NCBI GenBank assembly: GCA_031283505.1 | Contig: JAITBO010000188.1 | Location: 1 to 16,163, forward strand | Length of the DNA: 16,163 bases | Origin: Treponema sp. | Lineage (GTDB): Bacteria; Spirochaetota; Spirochaetia; Treponematales; Breznakiellaceae | Reading direction: 5' to 3' | Shown: positions 6,570-15,929 of the stretch, piece by piece | Numbering within the stretch: the first letter of the stretch is position 1 | Layout: every line of letters starts with the position of its first letter | Position numbers and translations under genes: made by a program | Notes under the pieces: generated by a model | The model's database searches: none | Told to the model about the DNA's origin: nothing | The model's input: only the letters and a program-made list of their open reading frames with translations

Positions 6570-9110
6570 ATGGTGCGGTATACTGTCCTCAATATGGAAT
6601 TGAATCAGGAATTTATTGACGACCTTAAAATTAACGAAGTAGCGCTCATGCGGAAAATAGCGGAAGAACTTTCCGTTGCGGTGGGGCAGGTTTCGGCAGT
6701 GATTGGGCTTCTTGAAGAAGGAAGTACGGTGCCCTTTATCGCCCGGTACCGCAAGGAACGGACCGGAAGTCTGGATGAAGTGCAGGTGAGGGATATCGAG
6801 CATCTGTTTACCAGCGGAAAAAACCTGGAGACCCGGCGTATTGAGATTACCCGGGGGATTTTCGATCAAGGGAAGCTGACGGAACCGCTCTACGAAAACA
6901 TCATGAAAGCGGCGACCCTTACCGAATTGGAGGATATTTACGCGCCCTACAAGCGTAAAAAGAAGACCAGGGGTATGCTGGCGGTCAAAAAGGGGCTTGA
7001 GCCCCTGGCGGACGCGATGACCGGGCTTGAGGAAGCGGTGCTGCTTGCCAAAGCTGCGGAATTTGTGCATGAAGATACGGAGCGGCCTGAATTGTCGGTG
7101 GCGTCAGTTGAAGACGCGCTCCAGGGGGCCATGGATATTATCGCCGAGCGGGTGTCCCAGGATGCCGGGAACCGGGCGGCGGTGAAAGCCTTCTACCGCA
7201 AGGACGGACGTGTCATCGTCAAAGCCTCCGGAAAAGAGGGCCTTGGAGACGAGGAGGCGAAAAAAACTTCCACGTACCAGATGTACTGGGACTACACGGA
7301 ACCCCTGTCGCAGATTAAGCCCCACCGGGTTTTGGCGATAAACCGGGGAGAACGGGAAGGGATTCTTGATGTCACCATCGACGTGGACGCCGATACGGCA
7401 GTAAAGCTATTGCAGAAAAATTACGTCCTTCACAATGATTATCACAGAACCGCTGTTGAGGACGGCCTCAGACGGCTCCTCTCTCCGGCGGTGATTCGGG
7501 AACTGCGGGGGGATCAGGGGGACGCGGCGGACGATCACGGTATATCCGTGTTCAGCCAGAACCTCAAGAATTTGCTCATGCAGCAGCCTATCAAGGGGAC
7601 CCGTGTGCTGGGGATAGACCCGGGGATCAGAACAGGAACGAAGTGCGCGTTTCTGGACGACACCGGAAAATACCTGGGGAATGTCGTCATCTACAACCAC
7701 AAGGTTGAGGAGGCCAAGCGGCTTCTCCTTGAGGGAATTAAGCGTTACGATGTGCAGCTTATCGCTGTAGGAAACGGAACGGGTACGAAGGATGCGCAGG
7801 AGATCGTTTCCCAGGTAATTTCCGAAAACAGCCTTGAAGCGCTTTACACAGTGGTGGACGAAGACGGGGCGTCGGTGTACTCCGCAAGCGATATAGCCAG
7901 GGAGGAATTTCCGGAACTGGACCTGACCATACGGGGGGCGATTTCCATAGGCCGCAGGCTGCAAGACCCCCTGGCGGAACTTGTCAAAATCGATCCCAAG
8001 TCCATAGGGGTAGGGCTCTACCAGCATGATGTGAATCAAAAGAAGCTGTCGGAAACCCTGGACGAAGTGGTGTCATCGGTGGTGAACAATGTGGGCGTCA
8101 ACCTCAATACCGCCAGCGCTTCGCTCTTAAAATACGTCTCGGGGATCAACAGTTCCCTTGCGCGGAAAATCGTAAAGTACCGGGACGAAAAGGGCAGGAT
8201 CGCAAGCCGCGAGGAACTTACCACAGTGCCGGGGATGGGGCCGAAAAGCTACGAACAGTGCGCGGGGTTCCTCAAGATTCCTGAAAGCGCCGATCCCCTG
8301 GATAATACCTGGGTGCATCCCGAAAATTACGGGATTGCCCGGGACATACACAACACCATTACGGTCACCGGAAACATAAATACCGCAGAGGCGGCGCGAT
8401 TAAAAGAGAAGTACGGCGTGGGGGATACCACCATTAACGACATATCAGAGGAGCTTAAAAAACCGAACAGGGATCCCAGGGACGAATATCCCAAGCCCAT
8501 CATGCGCAAGGGGGTGATGACCTTTGAGGACTTGAGCGAAGGGATGAGCATTACCGGTAAGATCAAAAATGTGGTGGACTTCGGCGCTTTTGTGGATCTG
8601 GGGATCAAAGAGACCGCCCTGGTTCATATTTCCGAGATGAGCGACCATTTTGTAAAGGATCCCCTGGAAGCGGTAAAGGTAGGAGATGTGCTGGAATTCC
8701 GCATCCTCATCCTGGACCGGGACCGGCGGCGTATCAGCCTTACCCGCAAGACCAGCGGCCAGGGCAGACCTGAACACGGCGCGGTCGTGGGTCCTTCGTC
8801 AGATGTCCGGACACAACAGAGCGGGACCTCCGCTCCGGTGGAAAGGCACGGCGGTACAGGCAGGGACGGCGGCCCGGACAGACACAGCGGCGAACACCAA
8901 CGGGCGCTTGTGAAGAAGGCCGGTGCCGCACCAGGGAGCGGACCTGGCGCGGAGCGAGCCGGAGTGGGCCGGGGAGAACGGAGCGGATCGGCTGGCCGTG
9001 GAGACGGCCAGGGCGGTTTCGGCAGGGAAAGCCGGGACGATGACGGGACCATGTACAATCCCTTTGCGGAGGCATTCAAAAAAATACAGGACAAGAAGAA
9101 CAGGCGGTAA
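6570..9110 (+). CDS. tex: Tex family S1 RNA-binding protein
   Basis: Conserved nucleic-acid-binding protein linked to transcription and RNA metabolism. The 846 residues contain, in order, the N-terminal helical region with GSTVPFIARYRKERTG, a YqgF/RNase H-like domain with LGIDPGIRTGTK (Asp350), a helix-hairpin-helix pair (about 508-560, NLNTASASLL and the VPGMGP turn) and an S1 domain (about 656-730). A Gly/Arg/Ser-rich, probably disordered tail of about 115 residues follows and ends with NPFAEAFKKIQ. The tail makes the protein longer than the roughly 770-780 residues typical of proteobacterial Tex. ATG 6570 is chosen because AAGGA lies just upstream; ATG 6594 is an alternative. No convincing terminator follows, only a weak 5-bp hairpin at 9117-9131. 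Confidence 0.95.
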   Translation: MVRYTVLNMELNQEFIDDLKINEVALMRKIAEELSVAVGQVSAVIGLLEEGSTVPFIARYRKERTGSLDEVQVRDIEHLFTSGKNLETRRIEITRGIFDQGKLTEPLYENIMKAATLTELEDIYAPYKRKKKTRGMLAVKKGLEPLADAMTGLEEAVLLAKAAEFVHEDTERPELSVASVEDALQGAMDIIAERVSQDAGNRAAVKAFYRKDGRVIVKASGKEGLGDEEAKKTSTYQMYWDYTEPLSQIKPHRVLAINRGEREGILDVTIDVDADTAVKLLQKNYVLHNDYHRTAVEDGLRRLLSPAVIRELRGDQGDAADDHGISVFSQNLKNLLMQQPIKGTRVLGIDPGIRTGTKCAFLDDTGKYLGNVVIYNHKVEEAKRLLLEGIKRYDVQLIAVGNGTGTKDAQEIVSQVISENSLEALYTVVDEDGASVYSASDIAREEFPELDLTIRGAISIGRRLQDPLAELVKIDPKSIGVGLYQHDVNQKKLSETLDEVVSSVVNNVGVNLNTASASLLKYVSGINSSLARKIVKYRDEKGRIASREELTTVPGMGPKSYEQCAGFLKIPESADPLDNTWVHPENYGIARDIHNTITVTGNINTAEAARLKEKYGVGDTTINDISEELKKPNRDPRDEYPKPIMRKGVMTFEDLSEGMSITGKIKNVVDFGAFVDLGIKETALVHISEMSDHFVKDPLEAVKVGDVLEFRILILDRDRRRISLTRKTSGQGRPEHGAVVGPSSDVRTQQSGTSAPVERHGGTGRDGGPDRHSGEHQRALVKKAGAAPGSGPGAERAGVGRGERSGSAGRGDGQGGFGRESRDDDGTMYNPFAEAFKKIQDKKNRR

Positions 9111-9206: not shown

Positions 9207-9255
9207 GGAACTGTACATAAATAAAATGCACAGTATGTTATTTATGTGCAGTTCC
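9207..9255. repeat. Inverted repeat, 18-bp arms, related to a dispersed repeat
   Basis: GGAACTGTACATAAATAA (9207-9224) pairs with 9238-9255 over 18 positions, all Watson-Crick except one G-U, around a 13-base loop. Positions 9203-9220 (CTTAGGAACTGTACATAA) are repeated exactly, inverted, at 15711-15728, and the half-site GGAACTGTACA also builds the palindrome at 289-304. This points to a small non-coding mobile or palindromic repeat. It lies between the operon promoter and the riboswitch, so it would be transcribed as a stable hairpin. Confidence 0.6.
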
Positions 9256-9269
9256 CTACGGCAAATTGA

Positions 9270-9460
9270 GATTTTCAGGGTGGGGTGAGCTGAGATTTAT
9301 TACTTGAGACCTGTTGTCTCAAATAATAAATCTCTACGCGATTCCCGACCGGCGGTATAGCCCGCGAGTCCTGAATGCGCCGGGATTCTATGTCCTGGCG
9401 GGGAAGGATTGAACCGGTGAAATTCCGGCGCCGACGGTATAGTCCGGATGGAAGAAAGTC
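9270..9460 (+). ncRNA. FMN riboswitch (RFN element) with an expanded P2 loop
   Basis: Binds flavin mononucleotide and controls the downstream riboflavin transport genes. P1 is GATTTTC (9270-9276) with GAAAGTC (9454-9460). J1/2 is AGGGTG (9277-9282). P2 is GGG (9283-9285) with CCC (9344-9346), followed by the conserved GACCGGCGG and P3 ending CCCGCGAG. P4 is TCCT/AGGA with an inner helix CGCCGGGA/TCCTGGCG. P5 is CCGG around TGAAATT and CCGG, followed by GCCGAC. P6 reads GACGGTATAGTCCGGATGG. These blocks match the class consensus closely. P2 is odd: its loop holds a 51-base insert. A candidate antiterminator pairs GGCTTC (9468-9473) with GGAGCC (9505-9510), overlapping the terminator's 5' arm, which suggests control by transcription termination. 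Confidence 0.93.
9289..9339 (+). repeat. Self-complementary insert inside riboswitch loop L2
   Basis: The arms 9292-9310 and 9316-9334 pair at 18 of 19 positions (one C-A mismatch) around the loop CTGTT. The flanks GC (9289-9290) and GC (9338-9339) can extend the helix across small bulges. The insert splits the canonical seven-base L2 exactly: TGA remains before it and GATT after it. The insert shows no coding capacity and no obvious target-site duplication. It may be a former mobile palindrome or an evolved helix extension. Confidence 0.75.
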
Positions 9461-9506
9461 GAGAGCCGGCTTCATAAAAGGCGCGGTTTCTTTTTTCCAA
9501 AACAGG

Positions 9507-9539
9507 AGCCCTTGGAGAGCGATCCCCAAGGGCTTTTTT
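9507..9539 (+). terminator. Intrinsic terminator, riboswitch expression platform
   Basis: AGCCCTTGG (9507-9515) and CCAAGGGCT (9526-9534) form a perfect 9-bp stem around ten bases, followed by a run of six T (9534-9539). It lies 46 bases after the FMN aptamer and 78 bases before the rfuA start. This is the classical arrangement in which ligand binding favours the terminator and stops transcription of the operon. Confidence 0.92.
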
Positions 9540-9617
9540 ATGCTCTGAAAGTCTCCAGATGCGGATAAAAGGGGTTTCTTCAAAACAAAGGATTTGAAAG
9601 CCCCAAAGGAGTGTAAA

Positions 9618-10697
9618 ATGAAAAACGCAACAAAATCTGCGGGGAAAATGACGGCAAAGCCGGTGGTACTTCTTGCGGCGGCTTTGGTACTTCTTGCGGC
9701 GCCGGTGTTTGCGGGCGGAACCCCGCAGAGCGGCGCGAAAAGCGGACAGAAGAATTCCCTGTCGGTACTGGTCTACATCACCGGGATGCTGGCAGGAAGT
9801 CCGCCCTACGAACTTCTGTCCGCCGGGGCAGAAATTTTTGCCGCCGCCCATGAGGGGGTAAGGGTAAAAGTCTACGAGGCGGGATTCAACCAGGCCGAAT
9901 GGGAGGAACAGTTGAGTTCCCTCGTGGCAAGCGGCGAATACGATGTCGTCTTGGGTTCCAATCCCTCGTTGCCCGAAATCTGCGCCAATGTGGGGAAAAA
10001 ATTCCCCAATCAGAAATTTATCATCACCGACGCTGCCTATGAAGGGAACGCCCAGATCAGCACATACCTTTACAACCAATACGAACAGTCTTTGTACCTG
10101 GGCTATCTGGCGGGGCTCATCACCGTGAGCGGTATGCCTCACGCCAATCCCGCCAAACGGCTGGGTTTCATCGCCGCCCAGGAGTATCCCCTGCTCAACA
10201 ACCATATCGTCCCCGGTTTCCTTGCCGGGGCGAAGCTGGCCGATCCCGGCGTCACCCTGGACTTTCGGGTAATAGGGAACTGGTATGACGCGAACAAAGC
10301 TGCGGAACTGGCCGGAAGCATGATCAGCGCCGGCGTGGACGTGTTCGCCGTCATTGCGGGAGGGGCCGCCCAGGGCCTCATCAAGACCGCCGCCAAACGC
10401 GGCGCGTATATAGTCTACCACAACACCAACGAGTACAGCGCCGCGCCGGGGATTATCCTGGGCTGCGGCCTCATGGAACAGAAGAAACTCGTGGAAGAGA
10501 TACTCTCCGATGTACTGGCCGGAAAGATTCAATACGGTACATCCCGTACTGTGGGGGCGGCGGAAGGCTACCTTGATTTCATCACCGGCGATCCGGGGTA
10601 CACCGATTATGTTCTCCCGGAAATACAGGCGAAGTTCAACAGTTTCCTTGCCGATATTAAGGCGGGGCGGGTGAACTATACCCTGCCGTCTCTGTAA
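9618..10697 (+). CDS. rfuA: Riboflavin-binding periplasmic protein, BMP family (RfuA-like)
   Basis: Substrate-binding component of the importer, 359 residues. The BMP (Bmp/PnrA/TmpC) fold is indicated by YDVVLGSNPS, KKFPNQKFIITDA, SLYLGYLAGLI, RLGFIAAQEYPLLN and DVFAVIAGGAAQGLI. The FMN riboswitch upstream points to riboflavin rather than nucleosides, as for T. pallidum RfuA. The start is ATG 9618, with AAGGAG (9606-9611) at good spacing; the in-frame TTG at 9594 has no such site. The signal peptide has a basic start, the hydrophobic core VVLLAAALVLLAA and a signal peptidase I-like site PVFA-GG. It lacks the lipobox cysteine expected of a spirochaetal lipoprotein, so the mature protein may be soluble in the periplasm. 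Ligand identity is an inference from context. Confidence 0.88.
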   Translation: MKNATKSAGKMTAKPVVLLAAALVLLAAPVFAGGTPQSGAKSGQKNSLSVLVYITGMLAGSPPYELLSAGAEIFAAAHEGVRVKVYEAGFNQAEWEEQLSSLVASGEYDVVLGSNPSLPEICANVGKKFPNQKFIITDAAYEGNAQISTYLYNQYEQSLYLGYLAGLITVSGMPHANPAKRLGFIAAQEYPLLNNHIVPGFLAGAKLADPGVTLDFRVIGNWYDANKAAELAGSMISAGVDVFAVIAGGAAQGLIKTAAKRGAYIVYHNTNEYSAAPGIILGCGLMEQKKLVEEILSDVLAGKIQYGTSRTVGAAEGYLDFITGDPGYTDYVLPEIQAKFNSFLADIKAGRVNYTLPSL

Positions 10698-10701
10698 CGC
10701 C

Positions 10702-12336
10702 ATGATTATCCCTGCCGCCTGTACATCGGCAAAAGAGAATCCGGTGGTGGAACTCCGGAATATTTCAAAGTTTTACGGCGGCAGAACCGGCGGGCATTGC
10801 CCTGATGTGGTGTATTGGGCAAACCGGAAAGTATCTTTGGACCTGTACAAAGGGGAGATACTCTGCCTTGCCGGTGAAAACGGCGCGGGAAAAAGCACAT
10901 TGATGAAAATACTCTACGGCCTCATCCCCCCTACTGAGGGAGAGATACTGGTAAGGGGCAGGAAAGTGAGCATCCACTCACCGGTTCAGGCAAACAAGCT
11001 GGGTATAGGAATGGTACACCAGCACTTTATGCTTTTTCCGGAATTCACGGTGGCGCAAAACGTAACCATGGGAATAGAGCCGGTTCGTTTTGGCGTTTTT
11101 TATGATACGTCCGCAGCCGAACGGCGGGTTCGGGAACTCATAGAAAGGCATCACTTTTCCGTCAAGCCCGGAACGCCGGTAGAAGAGCTTACTGTGGGAG
11201 AAATGCAGCAGGTAGAAATACTCAAGATGCTCTACCGGAACGCGGACATCCTTATCCTTGACGAACCGACAGCGGTGCTGACGAATCGGGAGATAACCGC
11301 CCTCTTTCGTACCTTTAAGGCTCTCTCTGAATCCGGTAAGTCCCTGATTCTTATCACCCACAGACTGAATGAAATCAAGCTGATTTCCGACAGGGTAGCG
11401 ATCCTGCGGAAAGGAGAAATGGCAGCCGTCCGGAAAACCGCCTCTCTTGATGAATTTGAGATGTCCCGTCTTATGGTAGGAACGGAAGTAAATCTGTGGT
11501 CAGATACCAAACGGCAGAAAGACTGCGCTGAGGGAGAACCGGTGATCGCCTTTGAGAACGTAACGGTGGAACGCCGTGGACAGAAACAGCCGCTCCTGGA
11601 CAATGTTTCTTTTGCCGTCCGCGCCGGGGAAATTCTAGCCTTTGCCGGCGTAGGGGGGAACGGCCTTGGGATGCTGGAAGCGGTTCTTGGGGGCTTCCTC
11701 CCTGTTACCGCCGGGCGGATACTCCTCTGCGGAGAGGACGTGTCCCGCTTCAGGACACGGGAACTGCGGAAACGGGGGTTGGCCTATGTTCCGGCAGACC
11801 GGCTGGGAGTGGGCAGCGCCGGGGAAGCCATGGTCTGGGAAAATATGATCGTGAACCGGCGGCGGGAATTTTTCCGGTGGGGAAAGGGATCTTGGTCTCG
11901 TGGCCGGGTCCCTCGTTTTCTCCCGGACAGGAAGAAAATGCTGCGTTACGCGAATCACCTCATCGAACGGTTCGGCGTCATGGGGGATGCGAATCAGCGC
12001 CTTGGCGTTCTCTCCGGAGGGAACATACAGAAGGTCATTCTGGCGCGGGAAATCGATCAATACAGAGATTATATCGTCTTTTCGGAACCGGCTTGGGGAC
12101 TCGATGTCGCCGCAAGCCGCTATGTTTACGAACAAATAACGGAACTTAGGGGAAAAGGAGCCGCGGTTATTCTCATTTCCTCAAACCTGGATGAAATACT
12201 GTCCCTGGCCGACAGGGTTATTGTTTTTTACCGGGGCGCTGCCACAGTGGAATTGCACCTTGAGGGGAACGGCAGAAACACCGGCATAAAAGAAGAAATC
12301 GGGGCGTATATGACAGGATTTAAACATGGAAACTGA
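10702..12336 (+). CDS. rfuB: Riboflavin ABC transporter, double ATP-binding protein (RfuB-like)
   Basis: Cytoplasmic ATPase of 544 residues made of two fused ABC domains, as in the RbsA/MglA/YufO group. Domain 1 is complete: Walker A GENGAGKST (58-66), signature region LTVGEMQQ (163-170), Walker B LILDEPTAVLT with Asp187-Glu188. Domain 2 is degenerate in the way usual for this group: GVGGNGLG in place of Walker A without its lysine, signature LSGGN (437-441), and SEPAWGLDV with Glu462. The gene starts four bases after the rfuA stop. ATG 10702 has no clear ribosome-binding site; GTG 10744, close to the conserved VELRNISKFYGG, is an alternative. It is coupled to the binding protein and two permeases of one operon. 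Confidence 0.92.
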   Translation: MIIPAACTSAKENPVVELRNISKFYGGRTGGHCPDVVYWANRKVSLDLYKGEILCLAGENGAGKSTLMKILYGLIPPTEGEILVRGRKVSIHSPVQANKLGIGMVHQHFMLFPEFTVAQNVTMGIEPVRFGVFYDTSAAERRVRELIERHHFSVKPGTPVEELTVGEMQQVEILKMLYRNADILILDEPTAVLTNREITALFRTFKALSESGKSLILITHRLNEIKLISDRVAILRKGEMAAVRKTASLDEFEMSRLMVGTEVNLWSDTKRQKDCAEGEPVIAFENVTVERRGQKQPLLDNVSFAVRAGEILAFAGVGGNGLGMLEAVLGGFLPVTAGRILLCGEDVSRFRTRELRKRGLAYVPADRLGVGSAGEAMVWENMIVNRRREFFRWGKGSWSRGRVPRFLPDRKKMLRYANHLIERFGVMGDANQRLGVLSGGNIQKVILAREIDQYRDYIVFSEPAWGLDVAASRYVYEQITELRGKGAAVILISSNLDEILSLADRVIVFYRGAATVELHLEGNGRNTGIKEEIGAYMTGFKHGN

Positions 12337-13456
12337 AAAAGAACGGATCGGGATAAACAGGAGATCCAATGGGCCGGGAATGTTGCAGCTTGCATTTTTC
12401 AGGAATTTACCGGCCCAGGCAGGAAGCGTAATACTTATTCTTTTCATCTCAATGACTGTAATGATGCTGATGGTTTTTTTTCTGAGCAAAGACCCGGCTG
12501 TTGCCCTCTCCTGTTTCTTCCTGGGCCCTCTGCGGAATACCTACTACTTCGGCAACATGATAAACAGCGCCGTTCCCCTCATCTTTGGGGGCCTTGGGGC
12601 GGCTGTGGCCATGCGGGGCGGGAATTTCAATCTGGGCGGCGAAGGACAGATATATTCGGGCGCATTTGTCGCCGTGATTGCTTCTCTTGCCCTGACATCT
12701 CTAGGCGCGGCAGGCGCAGTTCTGGCGCTCCTTGCGGGGGCGCTATTTGCCGGCGCGGCGGCGGGTTTTTCGGGGTTCCTGAAGGAAAAGTGGGACGCCA
12801 ATGAACTCATCACTTCCTTCCTGATTTCAAATGCACTGATACTGTTCACCAATTATTGCATCACCGGACCCTTTCTGGACCCGGAGACTAACCTCCAGTC
12901 CACCCGAAAACTTGCCGAATCCTGGAGGCTGCCCCGCATCCTGCCGCCTTCCAGTTTGAATGTCGCCCTCTTTTATGCCCTTGCTATGGCGGCCCTGGTA
13001 CACATCTTCTTCTACCGGACCCGGACAGGGTATGAAACCCGGCTCTGTGGAATCAATCCCTGGTTTGCCAAATATGGGGGGATCGATACCGGGAGAAACA
13101 CAATCCTTGCCATGTTTGTCTCCGGCGCCCTCTATGGACTAGGCGGAGGCATGACTGCTTACGGTACTTATTACGCAGCTATAAAGGAGTTTTCCTCCGG
13201 CATGGGGTGGAATGGCCTGGCAGTCGCCCTTCTTGCCCGGTCAAAGCCTGCGGCGGTTATTCCGGCGGCGGTTTTCTTCGCATGGATAGGCGCGGGCGCG
13301 CGGATAGCCATGCAGTTTTCCGATGTAACTTTCGAACTTGCTTCCATCATTCAGTCGGTGATCTTCTTCCTGGTTTCAAGCGCCGTACTGAGAGATCTTT
13401 TTGCGGCGGGAGATAAGACACGGAGACGGGAGCCGCCTCGGGGAGAAGTCCCCTGA
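12326..13456 (+). CDS. rfuC: Riboflavin ABC transporter permease 1 (RfuC-like)
   Basis: Inner-membrane permease of 376 residues, BPD_transp_2 family. A hydrophilic N-terminus (about 1-30) precedes a membrane segment at about 33-53 and several further hydrophobic stretches. The hallmark FNLGGEGQ (101-108) corresponds to the FNIGxEGQ motif of permeases that work with BMP-type binding proteins. It should form the channel with the second permease encoded next. The ATG overlaps the rfuB stop by 11 bases, with AGGA shortly upstream. The C-terminus is charged (KTRRREPPRGE) and probably cytoplasmic. Confidence 0.9.
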   Translation: METEKERIGINRRSNGPGMLQLAFFRNLPAQAGSVILILFISMTVMMLMVFFLSKDPAVALSCFFLGPLRNTYYFGNMINSAVPLIFGGLGAAVAMRGGNFNLGGEGQIYSGAFVAVIASLALTSLGAAGAVLALLAGALFAGAAAGFSGFLKEKWDANELITSFLISNALILFTNYCITGPFLDPETNLQSTRKLAESWRLPRILPPSSLNVALFYALAMAALVHIFFYRTRTGYETRLCGINPWFAKYGGIDTGRNTILAMFVSGALYGLGGGMTAYGTYYAAIKEFSSGMGWNGLAVALLARSKPAAVIPAAVFFAWIGAGARIAMQFSDVTFELASIIQSVIFFLVSSAVLRDLFAAGDKTRRREPPRGEVP

Positions 13457-15710: not shown

Positions 15711-15728
15711 TTATGTACAGTTCCTAAG
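15711..15728. repeat. Inverted copy of the dispersed 18-bp repeat
   Basis: TTATGTACAGTTCCTAAG is the exact reverse complement of 9203-9220, in the leader of the rfu operon. Only one arm is present here; the second arm that forms the hairpin at 9207-9255 is missing, so this is a solo or truncated copy. Confidence 0.6.
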
Positions 15729-15769
15729 GGCACAGTACCCCCGGATCTGGCGGTACTTCGTGGAAAAAA

Positions 15770-15848
15770 CCACGGAGGACATGGGGTTTTACGGAGAAAT
15801 AAAGAAAAAATTGAGATTTGTAACCCAAAACCCCGTGTTCCTCCGTGG
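15770..15848. repeat. Long imperfect hairpin, REP/MITE-like
   Basis: The arms 15770-15790 and 15827-15848 are complementary over about 21 pairs, with one bulge and one G-U pair. They begin CCACGGAGGA and end TCCTCCGTGG, and they enclose a 36-base A-rich loop. The loop starts with ACGGAGAAAT, a decamer also found in the hairpin element at the left edge (33-42). Families of dispersed palindromes with CTCCGTGG-type arms are common in genomes rich in insertion sequences. No gene is supported between 15593 and 15996. Confidence 0.6.
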
Positions 15849-15929
15849 TTAAAATTCCTATACGTTTATCCTGTTGAATAATCCTTTTGCCTTTTATATC
15901 CCTAAGGAGTATCATTTTGTAAACTTTTT

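What the first reader, a model, noticed from the sequence alone, without database searches (positions are those of the whole stretch)
9289..9339. FMN riboswitch with a 51-base helix inserted into its invariant P2 loop
In FMN riboswitches P2 is a three-pair stem closed by a near-invariant seven-base loop (UGAAAUU). Here the stem GGG (9283-9285)/CCC (9344-9346) is intact, but the loop is split after its third base by a self-contained hairpin with 18 of 19 arm pairs. The remaining seven bases, TGA and GATT, equal the canonical loop with one change. All other conserved blocks look normal. Since L2 contacts L6 in known FMN aptamer structures, the insert should either point outward harmlessly, change ligand response, or serve as a docking site for protein or RNase. 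The precise insertion point suggests a transposed palindrome or an evolved extension.
Basis: partly seen in the sequence, partly recalled or inferred. Interest (0 to 1): 0.72.

Follow-up and report, generated by a model that had tools for sequence, protein, structure and literature searches.

The report
FMN riboswitch with extended P2 hairpin
This vitamin-B2-sensing RNA switch carries a long extra hairpin in one of its conserved loops, but most of the related genomes examined that have the switch carry a hairpin of varying length at the same point, so it is a lineage feature and not a one-off oddity; in the closest relative examined, surprisingly, that hairpin contains a palindrome that is repeated across the genome.

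Summary
Rfam's FMN model matches window 9267-9463 (+) at 91.4 bits; the 51-nt hairpin splits the P2 loop between TGA (9286-9288) and GATT (9340-9343), with 18 of 19 arm pairs. The element precedes an rfuABCD-like importer operon.

It is not unique. In 195 genomes of the family of the nearest named relative, 76 of 92 FMN matches have a P2-loop hairpin, 11 a 7-nt loop, 5 were not parsed; in 392 phylum genomes, 21 of 111 matches. The insertion point is shared; sequence and length (L2 15-85 nt) vary; basal pairs covary (232 of 279 standard; shuffles 159, maximum 180). T-loop bases U1 (92/93) and A5 (89/93) persist. [quoted passage not shown] So this is a long example (third of 93) of a known variable extension.

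Side result: in the relative L001 the extension contains a dispersed palindromic repeat (49 copies elsewhere in that genome, 0 for the reversed pattern). The window's own hairpin is not shown to have that origin.

The parts
9267..9463 (+). FMN riboswitch aptamer (RFN element), RF00050 model 1-138
   Evidence: cmscan 91.4 bits, gathering 66.2, E 3e-20
9269..9276 (+). P1, 5' strand (3' strand 9454-9461)
   Evidence: structure line of the cmscan alignment
9283..9285 (+). P2, 5' strand GGG
9286..9288 (+). T-loop positions 1-3 (TGA) of L2
   Evidence: U1 kept in 92 of 93 extended elements
9289..9339 (+). 51-nt hairpin inserted between T-loop positions 3 and 4; arms 9292-9310 / 9316-9334, closing pairs 9289-9339 and 9290-9338
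   Evidence: same insertion point in the other extended elements
9340..9343 (+). T-loop positions 4-5 (GA) and two further loop bases (TT)
   Evidence: A5 kept in 89 of 93
9344..9346 (+). P2, 3' strand CCC
9347..9453 (+). P3-P6 and junctions, consensus-like; P4 variable
   Evidence: close to L001 outside the P2 insert and P4
9463..9499 (+). expression platform, first hairpin followed by a T-rich run; the T-run can also pair with 9449-9458, which overlaps the 3' strand of P1
   Evidence: prediction
9504..9539 (+). probable intrinsic terminator, GAGCCCTTGG..CCAAGGGC plus T6, conserved in L001; the simple terminator scan did not report it on the + strand (its loop limit is 8)
9605..9611 (+). Shine-Dalgarno-like AAAGGAG before the ATG at 9618
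   Evidence: sequence
9618..10697 (+). rfuA-like substrate-binding protein
   Evidence: Pfam Bmp PF02608; best PDB relative 4IIL, named TpN38(b), E 7.1e-66; the equation of TpN38(b) with T. pallidum RfuA is recalled
10702..12336 (+). ABC ATPase (RfuB-like)
   Evidence: PF00005; NCBIfam matches all listed below their cut-offs
12326..13456 (+). permease (RfuC-like)
   Evidence: PF02653
13456..14367 (+). permease (RfuD-like)
   Evidence: PF02653

Best explanation
A functional-looking FMN riboswitch of an rfuABCD-type flavin importer operon whose P2 T-loop carries a long apical helix. The helix interrupts the loop between T-loop positions 3 and 4, a site where this bacterial family usually carries a helix of variable length and sequence. 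It most likely leaves the T-loop intact (U1-A5 pair, gap between positions 4 and 5 that takes the base of L6), points away from the FMN site, and acts as a peripheral structural extension, at most stabilising P2 while the RNA folds. FMN binding would stabilise P1 and favour the downstream terminator. Shown: insertion point, pairing, covariation, conservation of T-loop bases, prevalence in relatives. Inferred: geometry, neutrality for ligand binding, termination control.
For: Model match with P1-P6. Family draw: 92 matches in 81 of 195 genomes; 79 elements fetched or given as loci, 75 parsed, 65 with L2 of at least 15 nt and 10 with 7 nt; of the other 13 rows 11 extended and 1 with 7 nt were already parsed (L089) is cut by a contig end. 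Phylum draw: 21 of 111 matches extended, 86 with 7 nt, 4 other. Of the 80 loci a pattern scan found an FMN element in 8, and all 8 have the hairpin. Basal three apposed pairs of the insert standard in 232 of 279 cells over 93 distinct L2 strings; 1000 shuffles of 3' ends mean 159.5, sd 6.3, maximum 180. U1 92/93, A5 89/93, last loop base T 93/93; L6 GGTATA or GGTACA in 73/93. Window and L001 are close in the aptamer core but differ strongly in the insert. Precedent: PMC2258182, passages read, for interruption of the GNR triloop of FMN T-loops by a helix; PMC3764141, passages read, for L2 as a T-loop UGAAA with A90 of L6 intercalating between its fourth and fifth bases.
Against: No structure, probing or expression data. 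Position 4, a purine in all 97 elements without a hairpin, is C or T in 20 of 93 with one, so the loop may be somewhat changed. The window's insert is long: third of 93. The shuffle does not correct for relatedness, and one element (G220) is in it twice, in two registers (L165, L293). L2 was parsed by my own pattern scripts; at least one row is doubtful (L363) and a few have shifted registers. Two earlier parsers missed most elements and were replaced.
Confidence: 0.86

Rival explanations
1. The 51-nt insert is a transposed, dispersed palindromic repeat (or its decayed remnant) that landed in L2.
For: In L001 the L2 extension holds a repeat-A copy: 35 of 40 identical to the consensus, score 55 against a maximum of 31 in 20,000 pair-preserving shuffles; repeat A has 49 copies in G001 and 21 in G002 at up to 3 mismatches, reversed-pattern controls 0. 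Window and L001 inserts are weakly alike beyond shared pairing (p = 0.037, 5000 shuffles), and the window's inner arm TTGAGAC/GTCTCAA resembles the outer arm of repeat A. In one relative, G559, four places match the same 27-nt stretch of the window's hairpin at 85% (E 0.045 each, three of them near the start of a contig, not followed up). Another palindrome, 9207-9255 just upstream of the riboswitch, does look dispersed (15 matches in G001, some being both strands of one place, best E 3.3e-9; 18-nt exact copy at 15711-15728).
Against: The window's insert shows no significant similarity to repeat A (p = 0.41) and no hit at E <= 10 in 8 relatives. In 195 relatives 54 give a match at E <= 1 but none better than 0.045 per genome, about what 195 searches give. 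The second-longest L2 (G523) is unique in its own genome (best other place E 0.139).
Confidence: 0.1
2. The hairpin is a regulatory add-on: a docking site for a protein or RNase, or a second sensor, that tunes the riboswitch.
For: It is long, stable (z -7.66), and pairing at the base is kept in relatives.
Against: Sequence and length differ widely, also between window and L001. Extended elements precede rfuA-like genes and, by eye, rib genes. I did not run a motif search over the inserts.
Confidence: 0.08
3. The riboswitch is disabled by the insert.
For: Loop interrupted; L001 scores only just above the family cut-off (68.9 against 66.2).
Against: Core conserved, basal pairing of the insert conserved, and the extended form is the commoner one in the family.
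Confidence: 0.03

Closest known systems
FMN riboswitch / RFN element (RF00050)
   Same: P1-P6, conserved core blocks, gene context of a flavin importer
   Different: L2 T-loop interrupted by a 51-nt helix
Interrupted T-loops of FMN and AdoCbl riboswitches as described by Barrick & Breaker 2007 (PMC2258182, passages read)
   Same: [quoted passage not shown] stated for the loops capping P2, P3 and P5 of the FMN class together with two AdoCbl loops
   Different: The passages read give no lengths, lineages or counts, nor which of the loops; the figures were not seen
rfuABCD homologue under an FMN riboswitch in Spirochaeta smaragdinae (PMC4418817, passages read)
   Same: Riboswitch upstream of the same kind of operon in a spirochaete
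   Different: Loop anatomy is not discussed in the passages read
Rickettsia palindromic elements in tmRNA and RNase P (M1) RNA genes (PMC2229807, passages read)
   Same: Palindromic mobile repeat inside a structured RNA; comparable to L001 only
   Different: Different element and size; the window's insert is not shown to be a repeat

Membership tests
FMN riboswitch (RF00050) | covariance-model score over the gathering cut-off, full model length | tested here: met
   91.4 bits against 66.2, model 1-138
FMN riboswitch (RF00050) | upstream of flavin synthesis or transport genes | tested here: met
   rfuABCD-like operon starts at 9618; transport of riboflavin itself not tested
FMN riboswitch (RF00050) | binds FMN | not testable with these tools
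   needs in-line probing
FMN riboswitch (RF00050) | ligand-controlled expression platform | tested here: inconclusive
   terminator-like hairpins predicted downstream, similar in L001; switching not shown
FMN T-loop interrupted by a helix (Barrick & Breaker) | U1 and A5 of the T-loop kept, helix inserted inside the GNR triloop at one point | tested here: met
   window TGA|insert|GATT; U1 92/93, A5 89/93 in extended elements
FMN T-loop interrupted by a helix (Barrick & Breaker) | insert is a base-paired helix, with covariation | tested here: met
   relatedness not corrected for
dispersed palindromic repeat A | similarity to the repeat consensus above a pair-preserving null | tested here: not met
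   window p = 0.41; L001 0 of 20,000
dispersed repeat of any kind | further copies in the same genome | not testable with these tools
   the window's genome is not held; relatives searched

The most novel reading that the evidence does not exclude
The tip of the P2 extension is a tolerated landing site where dispersed palindromic (REP-like) elements are captured and turned into riboswitch arm, so that mobile hairpins lengthen the helix coaxially without breaking the aptamer. L001 would be a recent capture and the window an older, internally shortened one.
Probability: 0.13. Interest if true: 0.6.

Novelty: new member of a known kind. Interest (0 to 1): 0.3.

Why it matters
It shows how much freedom a riboswitch's tertiary contact loop has: in one bacterial family the FMN T-loop is usually opened at one fixed point and filled with helices of varied sequence. 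That gives a natural series of L2 lengths (7 to 85 nt) for testing how T-loop contacts tolerate insertions, and an insertion point that covariance searches should allow for. The repeat inside L001's hairpin is a candidate case of a mobile palindrome built into a regulatory RNA.

Tried and rejected
Unique or artefactual insert: rejected, 76 of 92 family matches have one. A different placing of P1/P2: none offered by the model. Transposed palindrome in the window: not supported. Extension tied to transport genes only: rejected; frames that look like ribD and riboflavin synthase follow some extended elements (read by eye by recalled motifs, no family search was run on them). In the family draw 47 of 64 extended and 4 of 7 other elements have an rfuA-like gene in the fetched stretch, some stretches being cut short. 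AAACTGYAGTTT as a repeat core: too few copies; the longer palindrome was the right query. Repeat copies inside other structured RNAs: Rfam over 20 loci gave four tRNAs and nothing else at or above the gathering score. Searches that led nowhere: phages, viral contigs, plasmids (57 records, matches of about 48 bases or less in the rows shown).

Limits. L001's insert is L001:638-715; I queried 629-706, so 9 nt of core were included and 9 nt of the insert left out. One search counts hits at E <= 10 and counts both strands of a palindrome. The pattern has fixed length and misses copies with one base more, such as those seen in G005 and G006; it does not list L001's own copy. Four elements present in both draws (L289, L293, L294, L296) were dropped before the merged count. 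Of 79 fetched family elements 4 were not parsed (L348, L357, L360, L361). FMN elements outside the Spirochaetota-type genomes were not surveyed. Closer relatives of the rfuA-like protein (88%) are known only from metagenomes whose DNA I could not reach.

Not in print, as far as searched (open-access library; listings only, except the passages named): FMN riboswitch with Treponema (4 papers); with P2 helix and insertion (2); with spirochete and riboflavin transporter (5); RFN element with additional stem-loop (0); palindromic repeats in termite-gut Treponema (4, of which 3 listed); riboswitch with repetitive extragenic palindromic (6). The papers listed there were not opened except PMC2258182, PMC3764141, PMC4418817 and PMC2229807, passages only.

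Full report
WHAT IS THERE. The window reads GGG-TGA-[51 nt]-GATT-CCC at 9283-9346. The Rfam covariance model for the FMN riboswitch covers 9267-9463 over its full length at 91.4 bits and places the extra bases in the P2 loop. The insert folds as a hairpin with 18 of 19 arm pairs and two closing G-C pairs. P2 plus insert is far more stable than 200 dinucleotide-preserving shuffles (z -7.66).

CONTEXT. Downstream lie a Bmp/PnrA-type binding protein, an ABC ATPase and two permeases. The closest solved structure to the binding protein is 4IIL, named TpN38(b) (E 7.1e-66), which I recall as RfuA of Treponema pallidum. NCBIfam gave nothing over its cut-offs; its best models for three of the four proteins are a putative B6 transporter, well below cut-off. 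PMC4418817 (passages read) reports an FMN riboswitch on an rfuABCD homologue in Spirochaeta smaragdinae. The nearest relatives of the binding protein in genome contigs are two Treponema MAGs at 86%; closer ones (88%) are known from metagenomes only. After the aptamer come two terminator-like hairpins, the second a strong one with six T, both with counterparts in L001. A stretch overlapping the 3' strand of P1 can pair with the T-run of the first, which suggests transcription control, but switching is inferred.

RELATIVES. Among the 80 loci, a pattern scan found an FMN element in 8 (some contigs start close to the gene), and all 8 have a hairpin in the same place, with inserts of 14 to 78 nt. 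Rfam itself was run on 19 of those 80 loci and found FMN in L001 and L012 only, in line with the scan. In 392 genomes drawn from the phylum of G001, 103 had a match; of 111 matches 21 have an L2 hairpin (20 fetched plus L001), 86 a 7-nt loop and 4 another short loop. In the 195 held genomes of the family of G001, 81 had a match, 92 matches in all. Of 79 elements read anew 75 were parsed: 65 with an L2 hairpin and 10 with a 7-nt loop. The other 13 rows were known already: 11 extended, 1 with 7 nt, 1 cut by a contig end (L089). That makes 76 extended, 11 with 7 nt and 5 not parsed of 92. Apart from a few rows of doubtful register, the insertion point is constant: after the third and before the fourth base of the T-loop.

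IS IT A HELIX UNDER SELECTION. Over 93 distinct L2 strings the first three apposed base pairs of the insert are standard in 232 of 279 cells; re-dealing the 3' ends 1000 times gives a mean of 159.5 (sd 6.3, maximum 180). G-C, G-T, A-T and T-A occur at the first pair, C-G, T-A and G-C at the second. This control does not correct for relatedness, and one element is counted twice in two registers. T-loop bases persist: U1 in 92 of 93, A5 in 89 of 93, final T in 93 of 93, and L6 keeps GGTATA or GGTACA in 73 of 93. Against full neutrality, position 4 is a pyrimidine in 20 of 93 extended loops but in 0 of 97 others.

WHAT IS KNOWN. [quoted passage not shown] PMC3764141 (passages read) describes L2 as a T-loop UGAAA into whose gap between the fourth and fifth bases A90 of L6 intercalates. 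The window fits both. It is a long example, third of 93 by length, of a described kind of variation. What is added here is its prevalence and covariation in one bacterial family.

A SURPRISE IN THE NEAREST RELATIVE. A query covering most of L001's insert (629-706; the insert is 638-715) hits the eight genomes first examined 11 to 77 times each at E <= 10, both strands counted. Twenty of the matched places, read with flanks, share a palindrome of about 38 nt, in full or with one arm worn, close to TGAGGCTTTCCCAAAACT(GA/TC)AGTTTTGGGAAAGCCTCA. Its core occurs 49 times in G001, 21 in G002 and 1-4 times in the other six at up to 3 mismatches, with none for the reversed pattern. L001's hairpin matches 35 of 40 consensus bases, keeping one pair by changes on both sides, and scores 55 against a maximum of 31 in 20,000 pair-preserving shuffles. 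So a dispersed palindrome forms the tip of L001's P2 extension. Y1-transposase matches are most numerous in the same genome, G001 (10; 0-2 in the other seven); with eight genomes this is only suggestive of a REP/RAYT pair.

DOES THIS HOLD FOR THE WINDOW. Not shown. Its insert has no significant similarity to repeat A (p 0.41), only a weak one to L001's insert (p 0.037), and no convincing further copy in 8 or 195 relatives. The best there is E 0.045, in G559 at four places with the same 27-nt stretch (and once in G185); these were not followed up. Its own genome is not held. The separate palindrome just upstream, 9207-9255, does look dispersed: an 18-nt exact copy at 15711-15728 and 15 matches in G001. 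That search also shows that the method can find diverged repeats across species.

VERDICT. A real FMN riboswitch with an ordinary, if long, lineage-typical P2 extension. Modest interest for the finding itself; more for the repeat in L001.

Noticed in passing
window 9207-9255 and 15711-15728: A palindrome (21-nt arms, 90% complementary) lies just upstream of the riboswitch; an 18-nt stretch of it recurs exactly at 15711-15728 and G001 gives 15 matches, some being both strands of one place: a dispersed repeat family.
   Followed up: partly
L001 about 656-695; genomes G001, G002: A dispersed palindromic repeat (49 and 21 copies) lies inside the P2 extension of L001's FMN riboswitch.
   Followed up: partly
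G559 (L365 and three more places): Four places match the same 27-nt stretch of the window's hairpin at 85% identity, three near the start of a contig; E 0.045 each.
   Followed up: no
L194, L195: FMN elements whose P2 appears capped by a UUCG-type loop (GGGACTTCGGGTCCC) instead of the T-loop, upstream of rfuA-like genes.
   Followed up: no
L190, L197, L198: FMN elements with extra sequence in the L6 region between GACGGT or GACAGT and AGTC.
   Followed up: no
G001:C265:7233-7262 and 7534-7629: A repeat-A copy lies about 270 nt from a Y1-transposase fragment; G001 has 10 such matches.
   Followed up: no
window 15768-15850: A 23-nt inverted repeat, 78% complementary, near the end of the window.
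   Followed up: no
L003 222-253: Repeat-A-like palindrome reaching the start of the rfuA-like match (252) in another treponeme.
   Followed up: no
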